DNA of 64,000 bases, taken from positions 1-64,000 of the forward strand of contig VGRW01000011.1 of assembly GCA_016875225.1 (NCBI GenBank), written 5' to 3'. Below the pieces are notes generated by a model. It did not search any database and was not told the origin of the DNA. It was given only the letters and a program-made list of their open reading frames with translations. Source of the stretch: Deltaproteobacteria bacterium (GTDB taxonomy: Bacteria; Myxococcota_A; UBA9160; SZUA-336). The first letter of the stretch is position 1; the number at the start of each line of letters is the position of its first letter. Both the position numbers and the translations under genes were made by a program. Below, piece by piece: positions 28,294 to 36,773 of this stretch.

Positions 28294-29106
28294 ATGGCCC
28301 AGCCGCGCAAGCTCGGAGCGCTCTCGACCGGATACCCGCGAATCCTGCCGCCGACGCCGACGGCGCTGCGCACACCCGCGGACGGGCTGGTCGAGGGAGC
28401 GGTCTGGGTGCCGGTCGAAGACGGCGAGCTGCCAGGGTACCGGGCGATGCCCGCCGGCGCGGGGCCGCACCCGATCCTGCTCGTCGTCCAGGAGATCTTC
28501 GGCGTCGACGAGTACCTGAAGGACATCTGTCGGCGCGCGGCGCACGCGGGCTACGTCGCGATCGCGCCCGAGCTCTACGCCCGCGAGGCCCGGCCCGGCG
28601 AGTGCGAGACGCTCGAAGCCGTGCTCGAGATCGTCCGCAACGCGCCCGATGTGCGCGTGCTCGGCGATCTGGACGCGAGCGCGGAGTTCGCCGTGCGCGA
28701 GTGCTCGGGCGACCCGACACGGATCGGCGTCACCGGCTTCTGCTGGGGCGGGCGGATCGTCTGGCTCTACGCCGCGCACGAGGCGCGGCTGCGCGCCGGC
28801 ATCGCCTGGTACGGGCGGCTGGTGGGCGACACCGACCCGCGTCACCCCCGCCAGCCGCTCGACGTCGCCCCCGAGCTGCGCGTGCCCGTGCTCGGCCTGT
28901 ACGGCTCCGAAGACACCGGCATCCCGCTCGAGACCGTCGAGCGGATGAAGACCGCGCTCGACGCCTCCGATTCGGGCTCGACGTTCGTGGTCTACGAGGG
29001 CGCCCCGCACGCCTTCCACGCCGACTACCGCTCCAGCTACCGGCCCGAGCCCGCGCGCGACGGCTGGGCGCGGATGCTGGCCTGGCTGCGAGCGCACGGC
29101 GCGTAG
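28294..29106 (+). CDS. Dienelactone hydrolase-family protein
   Basis: A 270-residue alpha/beta hydrolase. The catalytic triad is Cys150 in GFCWGGR, Asp207 in YGSEDTGIP and His239 in GAPHAFH, the Cys-Asp-His arrangement of carboxymethylenebutenolidase. An N-terminal extension of about 30 residues precedes the fold, without a clear signal peptide. The family opens lactone rings in aromatic degradation but also includes general esterases. No chlorocatechol genes are nearby, so the substrate is undetermined. The start has GGGAGG. A CATAAT box 24 nt before the ATG (28264-28269) is a possible -10 element. Confidence 0.9.
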   Translation: MAQPRKLGALSTGYPRILPPTPTALRTPADGLVEGAVWVPVEDGELPGYRAMPAGAGPHPILLVVQEIFGVDEYLKDICRRAAHAGYVAIAPELYAREARPGECETLEAVLEIVRNAPDVRVLGDLDASAEFAVRECSGDPTRIGVTGFCWGGRIVWLYAAHEARLRAGIAWYGRLVGDTDPRHPRQPLDVAPELRVPVLGLYGSEDTGIPLETVERMKTALDASDSGSTFVVYEGAPHAFHADYRSSYRPEPARDGWARMLAWLRAHGA

Positions 29107-29110
29107 CTCG

Positions 29111-29440
29111 CTACGCCAGGATCGCGACGTAGACCAGCTTGCAGACCAGGTGCAGCCCCTGGTCCTGGTTGAAGGAGAGGCGGCCCTCGCACTTCATGAA
29201 GTCGATCGCGACGTGGATCGCCGCCTCGAGCGCGCCGAGCGGCCACAGGCCCGAGATCAGGTAGACCGCGCCACCGTGGGTGATCCCGTGTGCGCCGAGC
29301 CAGTAGTACCAGGGCGGAAAGCCGGGCCCGCGGGCCGCCGCCATGTCGCGCCGGCGGCTCTTCCCGCTCCCCATCGCCTCGCCCTGCAGCACCCCGTCGC
29401 AGACCGCGTGCGCGACGATGAAGAGAAAGAGCTGCTCCAT
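29111..29440 (-). CDS. DUF3307-type small membrane protein
   Basis: A 109-residue protein resembling DUF3307. It starts with a hydrophobic helix (LFLFIVAHAVCDGVLQ), has a second segment around GITHGGAVYLISGLWPLGALEAAIHVAIDF, and ends with FNQDQGLHLVCKLVYVAI, the conserved DQxLH helix of the family. The function is unknown. A perfect TGTGA-N6-TCACA site lies 60-75 nt upstream of its start, so control by a CRP/FNR-family regulator is possible. Confidence 0.75.
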   Translation of the reverse strand: MEQLFLFIVAHAVCDGVLQGEAMGSGKSRRRDMAAARGPGFPPWYYWLGAHGITHGGAVYLISGLWPLGALEAAIHVAIDFMKCEGRLSFNQDQGLHLVCKLVYVAILA

Positions 29441-29497
29441 TCGCCGCGCGCCCTCGCGATGGTTGAGCTGCAGGCTACGCCTCGGCGTCGCCGCGAC

Positions 29498-29517
29498 ACT
29501 GTGAATTCCTTCACAGT
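29498..29517. promoter_or_regulatory. CRP-like palindromic site TGTGA-N6-TCACA
   Basis: Eight-base arms (ACTGTGAA and TTCACAGT) flank TTCC. The core is exactly TGTGA-attcct-TCACA, the E. coli CRP consensus half-sites with the right 6-bp spacing. It lies in the 96-bp gap between uspA and the DUF3307 gene, centred about 67 bp before the latter's ATG. Because it follows the uspA stop it could also act as a weak hairpin, but there is no T-tract. Confidence 0.55.
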
Positions 29518-29536
29518 CCGCGCGGTGCCGGGGCGT

Positions 29537-29989
29537 TCAGCGCGACGGGCGGTGCACCAGAACGGGGACCTTCGCCTGCGCGAGCACCTTCTGCGTCTCG
29601 CTGCCGAGCAGCAGGCCGCGGATTCCGCGCCGGCCGTGCGAGGCCATCACGATCAGGTCGCACTTGCGCCGCTTCGCCTCGGCCAGGATCGCGTCGGCGG
29701 GAAAATCGCTCTTCACGCAGACGCTGCTGCAGGGCACCCCGGCCGCCTTCGCGGCCTTCTCGATCTGGCCCAGGTGCGTCGCCGCGGCCTTCTCGATCAG
29801 CTCCTCGTTCTTGCGCGTGGTCGAGTAGCCGGCGGGCAGGCGATTGCGGAACAGGATCGGCGTCGCGGCCGGCGCCGCGAAGAGCCCCGTGATTCGCGCG
29901 CCCAGAGCGCGGGCCAGCGCGATCGCGTCGCGGACGGCGGCTCGCGAGAGCGGCGAGCCGTCGGTCGGAACCAGGATGTGCGTGTACAT
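29537..29989 (-). CDS. uspA: Universal stress protein (UspA family)
   Basis: A 150-residue UspA domain. It opens with MYTHILVPTDGSPLS, and near the C-terminus HGRRGIRGLLLGSETQKVL supplies the G-2X-G-9X-G-S/T nucleotide-binding motif, so this is an ATP-binding type. A conserved DLIVMASHG strand precedes it. Such proteins modulate stress responses and often partner with transporters. Here it follows an ion-transporter gene by 15 nt on the same strand, so it may regulate or sense that transporter. Confidence 0.92.
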   Translation of the reverse strand: MYTHILVPTDGSPLSRAAVRDAIALARALGARITGLFAAPAATPILFRNRLPAGYSTTRKNEELIEKAAATHLGQIEKAAKAAGVPCSSVCVKSDFPADAILAEAKRRKCDLIVMASHGRRGIRGLLLGSETQKVLAQAKVPVLVHRPSR

Positions 29990-30004
29990 CGACTCGACCT
30001 CCGG

Positions 30005-31318
30005 CTAGTTCGCGTACGGTAGCACCCAGATCAGCATGCCCAGCGCGTAGCAGACGATGGAGCAGACCAGCGTGAACGGCACGCTCCAGGCCAGGAACTC
30101 GCGCAGCGAGATCTTCCGACCCTCTTCCTTCTCGGCCAGGCTCAGCGCGACGTAGAGCGCGGGCGCGCCCGCGATGCTGAGGTTGCTGCCGAGCGTCCCC
30201 GACCAGAGCAGCATCCAGTACAGCGGCCAGGGCTCGATCCCGGCGTGGCCCAGGTCCCGGATCGTGTACAGGAACGTGAGGATGTACGCGTCGTGCTCGA
30301 CCAGCCCGACGATCGGGATCGTGATCCAGTACAGCACCGTCGCGCCGAGCGGGTAGCTCTGCGCGAAGAGCGGCTTGATCCCGCCGGCGAGCAGCTCGAG
30401 GATGTGGCTCTTCTCGAGCCCGCCGACCAGCGCGAAGAGCGCGATGTAGAAGAAGATCGCGCGCCAGTCGAGCTCGCCGACCATCGCCTCGATGCTCGGC
30501 GCCTTCGCGCGGCTGCCGAGCAGGGTGAGCGCCAGCACGAGCGTGACCGCGCCGGTGAGCGCGATGAAGCCGAGCTTCACGTCGAGCGCCTCGCGGAACG
30601 ACATCGCCACCACGGTGCCCACGAACCAGAGCACCACGACCGAGGCGAACAGGGGATTGGGGATGCGCGCGTCGATGCCGAGCGCCGCGATGTCGCGCAC
30701 GCGCTCGCGGCCGCGGAAGCCGTAGGCGTACATCGCGGCCAGCGTGATCAGGAACGTGACGAGCAGGATCGGAAACGACGACGGCCGGCCGAACTGCCAG
30801 ATGAAGTCGAAGAACTCCGCGCCGGCCACGCCGTGCAGCATCTGCGGCGGCAGGTCGCCGATGATCAGCGCGGTGCCCATGAAGTTCGCGCCGAAGCCGA
30901 TCATCAGGATCACCGGCGCGGCGGCGAGCTTCATCGCGCGCGCCAGCGGCAGCGCGACCGGCGTCATCATCAGGATGGTCACGACGTTGTCGACGAACAT
31001 CGAGATGATCCCGGCCAGGAAAGCGAGGATCATCACCAGCAGCCCCGGCCGCCCGCCGGAGAGCCGCAGCGCCTGCAGCGAGAGCCAGCTCGGCACGCCG
31101 CTGTGCCCGAAGTAGCCCGCGATCAGCCAGACGCTGACCAGGATCGACATCACGTTCCAGTCGACGTAGCCGAACGCGTCGACCTCCGTCATCACGCCGA
31201 GCCAGATCATCGCGCTCACGCCGAGCAGCGCGGAGAGCGTGCTGTCGATCCGGTTGCTGACGACGGCCGCGATCGTGACGGCGAAGATGCCCAGCGCCAG
31301 CCACTGCGATGCGTCCAT
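30005..31318 (-). CDS. Ion transporter of the ArsB/NhaD (CitMHS) superfamily
   Basis: A 437-residue inner-membrane protein with about 11-12 helices. It resembles NhaD-type Na+/H+ antiporters and ArsB/SLC13 permeases. The conserved hairpin regions are IISMFVDNVVTILMMTPVALPLA in the first half and GLVEHDAYILTFLYTIRDLG with GTLGSNLSIAGAPALYVAL in the second, showing the inverted repeat of the fold. The transported ion could be sodium, arsenite or a dicarboxylate. The ATG at 31318 is chosen because the sequence becomes membrane-like directly afterwards. It is followed by uspA after 15 nt. Confidence 0.85.
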   Translation of the reverse strand: MDASQWLALGIFAVTIAAVVSNRIDSTLSALLGVSAMIWLGVMTEVDAFGYVDWNVMSILVSVWLIAGYFGHSGVPSWLSLQALRLSGGRPGLLVMILAFLAGIISMFVDNVVTILMMTPVALPLARAMKLAAAPVILMIGFGANFMGTALIIGDLPPQMLHGVAGAEFFDFIWQFGRPSSFPILLVTFLITLAAMYAYGFRGRERVRDIAALGIDARIPNPLFASVVVLWFVGTVVAMSFREALDVKLGFIALTGAVTLVLALTLLGSRAKAPSIEAMVGELDWRAIFFYIALFALVGGLEKSHILELLAGGIKPLFAQSYPLGATVLYWITIPIVGLVEHDAYILTFLYTIRDLGHAGIEPWPLYWMLLWSGTLGSNLSIAGAPALYVALSLAEKEEGRKISLREFLAWSVPFTLVCSIVCYALGMLIWVLPYAN

Positions 31319-35840: not shown

Positions 35841-36773
35841 ATGACCTCGAGTGCAGAGCAGCGAAGACCCCCGGCGATCCTGAGCGGCAACGTGTGCGGC
35901 GCCGACCCGAGCATGGCCTGGCGCGAAGAACTCGGGCCGATCTTCCGCGAGCACCAGGGTCGGGTGCTCGAGAGCGGCGACGGCGAGTTCATGGCGGAGT
36001 TCGCGACGGCGGCGGCGGCGGTGGCCTGCGCGCGCGAGATCTCGTCGATCGCGGGCGCCGAGTCCAGGATCGGCGTGCACAGCGGCGAGCGGCCGGCGAG
36101 CGTCGCCTCGAGGCTGCGGGATCTGGCGGCGCCGGGGGCGATCTGCATTTCCGAGGCGGTTCGCGCACAGCTCGACAGGAAGCTCGAGCTTCGCTTTCAG
36201 GATCTGGGCGAGCAGACGCTGGAGCAGGCGCCTGCGCCCCTACGCGCCTATCTCGTTCGCAGCGCCGCGCCCGCCGCGAGACAGCCCGAATTCCGACGTT
36301 TGGTGCTCCTGGTCCTCGGGGCGCTGGTCGCCCCGGGCATGATCGGGCTCGCCGGAGTCGCCTACCTGACGACGATCTGGCGCGCTCCGGGGCCCTCCGT
36401 CGCTCCGCTCGCCTCGGTCGCCGTGCTTCCCTTCGAGAACGTCGGACCCGACGCGGACCCTGCGCGGCTCGCGGATGGCATCGCCGAGGAGCTGATCCAG
36501 ACGCTCTCGGGAGTCGACGCGCTCCGCGTGGTCACGCGCCCGTCCGCGGAGATCGCCCGAAAGGACGGGATCGGATCGGTCGTCTCCGGCAGCGTGCGCC
36601 GCTCGGGAGATCAGGTCCGGATCACCGCCCGCCTGATCCGCGCGGCGGACGCCTCCGAGATCTGGTCCGCGAGCTACGACCGCACGCCGGACGACGCCGC
36701 CACCGTCCGCCAGGAGATCGCGCGCGAGGTCGCCGCTGCGATCCGGGCTGGAGGGCCGGCGAAGGCCGACTAG
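35841..36773 (+). CDS. Degenerate class III cyclase-like domain, membrane helix and TolB/FlgO-like domain
   Basis: A 310-residue membrane protein. Residues 10-125 resemble a class III adenylate cyclase, keeping ESGDGEFMAEF (44-54) and RIGVHSGE (76-83). The first metal-binding Asp is replaced (LSGNVCG instead of ADISG), and the Asn-x3-Arg transition-state region is shortened to VASRL, so catalysis is unlikely. One membrane helix spans about 153-180. Residues 190-300 match the periplasmic domain often placed behind such cyclases (VAVLPFENVG, DGIAEELIQTLS, GSVRRSGDQVRITARLI). AGGAGGAGG lies just before the ATG. It could be a signalling adaptor. The gene upstream is ygiQ, and it interlocks with htpX at its 3' end. 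Confidence 0.7.
   Translation: MTSSAEQRRPPAILSGNVCGADPSMAWREELGPIFREHQGRVLESGDGEFMAEFATAAAAVACAREISSIAGAESRIGVHSGERPASVASRLRDLAAPGAICISEAVRAQLDRKLELRFQDLGEQTLEQAPAPLRAYLVRSAAPAARQPEFRRLVLLVLGALVAPGMIGLAGVAYLTTIWRAPGPSVAPLASVAVLPFENVGPDADPARLADGIAEELIQTLSGVDALRVVTRPSAEIARKDGIGSVVSGSVRRSGDQVRITARLIRAADASEIWSASYDRTPDDAATVRQEIAREVAAAIRAGGPAKAD

What the first reader, a model, noticed from the sequence alone, without database searches (positions are those of the whole stretch)
29498..29517. Perfect CRP-type site before a DUF3307 gene
TGTGA-N6-TCACA with an extended 8-bp arm is a complete match to the E. coli CRP core in a GC-rich genome where such an AT-rich palindrome is unlikely by chance. It lies between uspA and the DUF3307 gene, so the unknown membrane protein may belong to a cAMP or FNR-family regulon.
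Basis: partly seen in the sequence, partly recalled or inferred. Interest (0 to 1): 0.5.

Follow-up and report, generated by a model that had tools for sequence, protein, structure and literature searches.

The report
CRP-type operator upstream of DUF3307 gene
A perfect copy of the DNA site recognised by CRP-type gene switches lies just before a small membrane-protein gene of unknown function, and comparison with related bacteria suggests it is a real switch rather than a chance match.

Summary
The palindrome ACTGTGAATTCCTTCACAGT is at 29498-29517 as described. Its core matches TGTGA-N6-TCACA 10/10 (0.007 expected in the window). It is centred about 67 nt before the DUF3307 start codon and begins 19 nt past the uspA stop. 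The genome has three proteins with a CRP-type helix-turn-helix. One (contig C10, recognition helix RESVNK) has a one-mismatch copy about 67 nt before its own start. The only other exact copy lies before an M23-peptidase gene, whose ortholog in the genus-mate also has one. In 59 genomes (own included) TGTGAA-N4-TTCACA occurs 107 times, against one reversed-control place, and tracks possession of this CRP. Seven of 29 usable CRP loci, own included, carry a near-exact site upstream (about 0.1 expected). So do four of eight DUF3307 homologs elsewhere (0.06 expected), though the four are not all independent. Best reading: an operator in a small, autoregulated CRP regulon that includes DUF3307. In this window GC-rich flanks also extend the palindrome into a hairpin, so an mRNA role is not excluded. 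Binding, ligand and sign of regulation are untested. New member of a known kind.

The parts
29498..29517 (.). Palindrome ACTGTGAA-TTCC-TTCACAGT, proposed operator
29500..29515 (.). TGTGA-N6-TCACA core, 10 of 10 consensus bases
29111..29440 (-). DUF3307-like gene (109 aa, four long predicted helices), proposed target; site centred about 67 nt before its ATG
   Evidence: Pfam PF11750 22.5 bits against cut-off 23; homologs; model
29537..29989 (-). uspA-like gene (PF00582) ending 19 nt before the palindrome; upstream neighbour, unlikely target
29480..29533 (.). GC-rich extension of the palindrome into a longer imperfect stem; rival reading as an RNA hairpin
   Evidence: no terminator-like site

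Best explanation
The palindrome is an operator for a CRP-type dimeric regulator, most likely the GlxR-like protein encoded on contig C10. The protein, probably with a cyclic nucleotide bound, would contact the two TGTGA half-sites upstream of DUF3307 and change transcription of that gene; the same protein would control its own gene and an M23 peptidase gene through similar sites. Shown: the site, the regulator genes, near-exact sites before the regulator's own gene in several genomes, recurrence before DUF3307 homologs, and class-wide enrichment of the motif that tracks the regulator. Inferred: that this protein binds this site, the ligand, and the sign of regulation (an activator is plausible from the position about 67 nt before the start codon).
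For: Exact core, 0.007 expected in the window. Three proteins with PF13545 in the genome; the C10 one has PF00027 and PF13545 domains, and the best PDB sequence matches are CRP/FNR-family regulators whose helix aligns as RETVNK to its RESVNK (that 4byy, 3r6s and 4cyd are GlxR and 3d0s, 3h3u and 3i54 M. tuberculosis CRP is recalled). GlxR's consensus is TGTGA-N6-TCACA (passages of PMC7999487; table passage of PMC5449483). Site TGTGAAGCGTTTCACT about 67 nt before the C10 CRP start. 7 of 29 usable CRP loci, own included, have a site with at most 1 mismatch within 250 nt upstream, against 0.07 expected, 1 of 29 downstream and 0 of 29 reversed. TGTGAA-N4-TTCACA: 107 places in 32 of 59 genomes, reversed control one place (sum). 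Genomes with a CRP match at E<=1e-40 have a site in 27 of 37, others in 5 of 22, p=0.0003. 4 of 8 DUF3307 homolog loci have a site with at most 1 mismatch in 250 nt upstream, 0.063 expected. Other exact own site lies before an M23-peptidase gene, and the genus-mate's ortholog (62% identical) also has one.
Against: No binding data. In the own genome only 3 places have TGTGAA-N4-TTCACA with at most 1 mismatch; at up to 2 mismatches 12 places stand against 7 reversed controls, so nothing beyond the few best exceeds background by much. 22 of 29 CRP loci have no near-exact upstream site, and 10 of 37 genomes with the CRP have no exact 12-base site. 4 of 8 DUF3307 homologs lack a near-exact site. 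Of the four that have one, L021 and L023 share the neighbouring gene order, L017's overlaps the last bases of an upstream reading frame and L007's frame is open across the site. At E<=1e-30, restricted to larger genomes, the co-occurrence p is 0.058. No sigma-70-type promoter found. A second CRP-type protein (C131, helix RETITR) could be the binder.
Confidence: 0.74

Rival explanations
1. RNA hairpin: the palindrome with its GC-rich flanks is a stem-loop in the uspA-DUF3307 transcript that marks or protects the uspA mRNA end, and the CRP resemblance is secondary.
For: Starts 19 nt after the uspA stop codon. Folds at -30.6 kcal/mol, z -3.46, on the transcript strand with a GGAA loop and -33.9, z -4.25, on the other strand. 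With the palindrome held fixed and flanks shuffled, the real flanks still fold better (0.016 and 0.008 of shuffles as good).
Against: No T-run and no terminator-like site. The signal is stronger on the strand that is not the transcript. L007, L021 and L023 sites show no such flanking extension and have other upstream neighbours, and near-exact sites recur upstream of CRP genes. One other own site (C38) does show an extension on one strand (0.008).
Confidence: 0.14
2. Operator of another regulator (the C131 CRP paralog, or a TetR-type repressor with a similar palindrome) rather than of the C10 CRP.
For: C131 carries the helix RETITR and scores higher on the E. coli CRP model (119.7 against 78.7 bits). 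The DUF3307 sites in L007, L021 and L023 are of the form GTGAAC-N2-GTTCAC, which also resembles TetR-type operators (recalled); a TetR gene lies next to one genus-mate site.
Against: The motif recurs directly upstream of C10-type CRP genes and tracks them across genomes. No equivalent test was made for C131 or for TetR genes.
Confidence: 0.2
3. Chance match with no function.
For: About 0.4 exact cores are expected in the genome by composition and 2 are seen.
Against: 0.007 expected in the window and 0.0001 for the 12-base form; recurrence before DUF3307 homologs; the other exact site is shared with the genus-mate ortholog.
Confidence: 0.06

Closest known systems
E. coli CRP (CAP) operators, TGTGA-N6-TCACA
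   Same: Exact 10-base core, spacing, position shortly upstream of a gene, regulator gene carrying a site of its own (crp autoregulation in E. coli: abstract in the listing, PMC3050693)
   Different: Inner bases are A/T next to the half-sites (TGTGAA...TTCACA) instead of the recalled E. coli T...A; the C10 protein misses the NCBIfam CRP equivalog cut-off (78.7 against 266); ligand unknown
GlxR of Corynebacterium and CRP of Mycobacterium tuberculosis
   Same: Best PDB sequence matches of the C10 protein (protein names recalled); aligned helix RETVNK/RESVNK; GlxR consensus TGTGA-N6-TCACA (passage)
   Different: Different phylum; regulon seen here is small in the own genome and of other content
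Intrinsic terminators and stabilising stem-loops downstream of genes
   Same: Stable hairpin just after uspA
   Different: No T-run, not found by the terminator scan

Membership tests
CRP-type operator | TGTGA-N6-TCACA core | tested here: met
   10 of 10 bases
CRP-type operator | CRP-family regulator encoded in the same genome | tested here: met
   three PF13545 matches over cut-off
CRP-type operator | N6 spacing preferred over others in the genome | tested here: met
   TGTGA-Nx-TCAC: 14 distinct places at N6 against 35 over ten other spacings, Poisson p 1.9e-5; but 6 of the 14 lie inside predicted genes, and the non-coding excess (8 of 14 against 9 of 35) is only p 0.05
CRP-type operator | Recurs upstream of orthologous target genes | tested here: met
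   4 of 8 DUF3307 homologs, 0.063 expected; not all independent
CRP-type operator | Lies at a mapped promoter | tested here: inconclusive
   No sigma-70-type match; transcription start unknown
CRP-type operator | Bound by the regulator | not testable with these tools
   needs gel shift
CRP proper (C10 protein) | cNMP-binding and Crp-type HTH domains | tested here: met
   PF00027 81.5 bits, PF13545 53.2 bits
CRP proper (C10 protein) | Passes NCBIfam cut-off for CRP equivalog NF008732 | tested here: not met
   78.7 against 266 bits; so CRP-like, not filed as orthologous CRP
CRP proper (C10 protein) | Responds to cAMP | not testable with these tools
   needs a ligand-binding assay
Intrinsic terminator | GC-rich hairpin followed by a T-run | tested here: not met
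   0 terminator-like sites in 29000-30100

The most novel reading that the evidence does not exclude
A GlxR-like, autoregulated CRP with its own palindrome (TGTGAA-N4-TTCACA, mostly with C or G next to the A/T bases) runs regulons of very different size across this class, from about three near-exact places in the own genome to 32 exact core sites in one relative, and DUF3307 membrane proteins have been placed under such sites in this class and, separately, in Gammaproteobacteria.
Probability: 0.35. Interest if true: 0.45.

Novelty: new member of a known kind. Interest (0 to 1): 0.3.

Why it matters
It gives a gene family of unknown function, with one paper found by name, a testable regulatory context, and it gives an uncultured-looking group a predicted CRP motif and autoregulated regulator that can be checked by gel shift. 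The mechanism itself is a textbook one.

Tried and rejected
Orientation error: one search assumed all loci were oriented alike; it was replaced and recounted. In one search one locus (L099) had a negative projected start and an invalid 2175-nt 'upstream' stretch; it was dropped, leaving 29 of 30 loci. L079 has only 48 nt of upstream sequence and is kept as a miss.

Repeat-family idea: the 96-bp intergenic stretch has no second copy in the genome at a convincing E-value. Rfam: one chance-level match. Terminator: none. Inverted repeats with arms of 12 or more: none. Conserved uspA operon: the transporter gene upstream of uspA was found in 1 of 11 family genomes, the own one, so synteny could not be used. 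Larger DUF3307 sample: 3 of 90 class genomes at E<=0.001, counting the own genome and a weak match in G010 not treated as a homolog, and 2 of 377 phylum genomes at E<=1e-10. Structure of the DUF3307 protein: four long helices, mean pLDDT 81.7, no PDB match with E<=0.001. Papers: one search gave 1 paper for DUF3307 (passage seen); two searches gave none; one search gave 18, of which I saw 8 in the listing only; one search gave 6, of which two were seen in passages.

Full report
The observation. The window holds ACTGTGAATTCCTTCACAGT at 29498-29517, two perfect 8-bp arms around TTCC. The core is an exact TGTGA-N6-TCACA. By first-order composition 0.007 such cores are expected in this 71.4% G+C window and 0.42 in the genome; the 12-base form TGTGAA-N4-TTCACA is expected 0.0001 and 0.006 times. 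The genome has two exact cores and no reversed control. Palindromes with 8-bp arms as such are ordinary here (54 counted, overlapping registers included), and matches with up to two mismatches are at chance level (8 against 7.46).

Surroundings. The site lies between two minus-strand genes: uspA (29537-29989, PF00582) and a 109-aa gene matching DUF3307 just below Pfam's cut-off (29111-29440; 22.5 against 23 bits). It begins 19 nt after the uspA stop codon and its centre is about 67 nt before the DUF3307 ATG, so DUF3307 is the natural target.

Regulators. Three proteins pass the PF13545 cut-off. The C10 protein has a cyclic-nucleotide-binding domain and a Crp-type helix-turn-helix, does not reach the NCBIfam cut-off for CRP proper (78.7 against 266), and matches best in the PDB to CRP/FNR-family regulators, with RESVNK aligned to RETVNK (that these are GlxR and M. 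tuberculosis CRP is recalled). GlxR's consensus is TGTGA-N6-TCACA (passage of PMC7999487). The C131 protein has RETITR. The C32 protein looks FNR-like in its helix (recalled criterion).

Other sites in the genome. A spacing test with TGTGA-N1..11-TCAC gave 14 distinct places at N6 and 35 over the ten other spacings (Poisson p 1.9e-5). Six of the 14 lie inside predicted genes, and the excess of non-coding places (8 of 14 against 9 of 35) is only p 0.05; that rule counts the M23 site as 'inside' because of a long antisense frame. With TGTGAA-N4-TTCACA, three places have at most one mismatch: the window site, the C10 CRP promoter (about 67 nt before the start) and one on C73 between a META-domain gene and an enoyl-CoA-hydratase gene. 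At up to two mismatches, 12 places stand against 7 controls, so the rest is near background. The second exact core lies before an M23-peptidase gene, centred about 72 nt before its first ATG or 57 nt before a TTG. In the genus-mate G001, two of its three exact cores lie before the M23 ortholog (62% identical) and the CRP ortholog.

The class. In 59 genomes, own included, TGTGAA-N4-TTCACA occurs 107 times in 32 genomes; the reversed control gives one place. Genomes with a C10-type CRP at E<=1e-40 have a site in 27 of 37 cases, the others in 5 of 22 (p 0.0003); among genomes of at least 3.5 Mb and 80% completeness 25 of 33 against 4 of 13 (p 0.007). Other thresholds gave p from 0.058 to 3.7e-5, and the 1e-40 cut was chosen after seeing the data. 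Of 30 CRP loci fetched, 29 were usable; 7 of 29, own included, have a core with at most one mismatch within 250 nt upstream, against 0.07 expected, 1 of 29 downstream and 0 of 29 reversed. G035 has 32 exact cores and no control; I read 23 of the 32, and 15 of 23 lie outside predicted genes by a simple rule.

DUF3307 elsewhere. Of eight homolog loci with upstream sequence (L007 and L017-L023; L024 has none and L008 is not a clear homolog), four have a core with at most one mismatch within 250 nt upstream, 0.063 expected: L023 exact, L021, L007 and L017 with one mismatch. L021 and L023 share their upstream gene order. L017's site overlaps the last bases of an upstream frame, and L007's DUF3307 frame is open across the site although homology starts after it. 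L018 has a two-mismatch version; L019, L020 and L022 have nothing close.

Hairpin rival. The palindrome folds well on both strands (z -3.46 and -4.25). Even with the palindrome fixed, the real flanks add stability (0.016 and 0.008 of flank shuffles do as well). This extension is absent at the L007, L021, L023, C10 and C73 sites, but one strand of the C38 site shows it (0.008). There is no T-run. An RNA role, alone or in addition, is therefore possible but does not explain the recurrence upstream of CRP and DUF3307 genes.

Conclusion. Binding, ligand and direction are inferences.

Noticed in passing
G035 (loci L125-L144): A relative with 32 exact TGTGA-N6-TCACA cores and no reversed control, apparently a much expanded regulon.
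   Followed up: partly
L037:1503-1518 and L103:1501-1516: Exact CRP-type cores before orthologous M23-peptidase genes with a Csd3_N2 domain in the own genome and its genus-mate.
   Followed up: partly
L021 and L023: In two gammaproteobacterial loci DUF3307 follows genes that look like hydratase, acetaldehyde dehydrogenase and aldolase genes of a meta-cleavage pathway (named by eye); the site lies between them.
   Followed up: no
window 35841-36770, +: A reading frame that resembles a degenerate cyclase-like domain followed by a TolB/FlgO-like part by eye, with no Pfam match at E<=0.001.
   Followed up: partly
window 29111-29440: The DUF3307 protein has invariant His, Asp and Lys residues across 9 homologs and a four-helix model without a PDB match.
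   Followed up: partly
L047:1501-1516: A genus-mate site lies just after a TetR-type gene and before a small secreted-looking protein.
   Followed up: no
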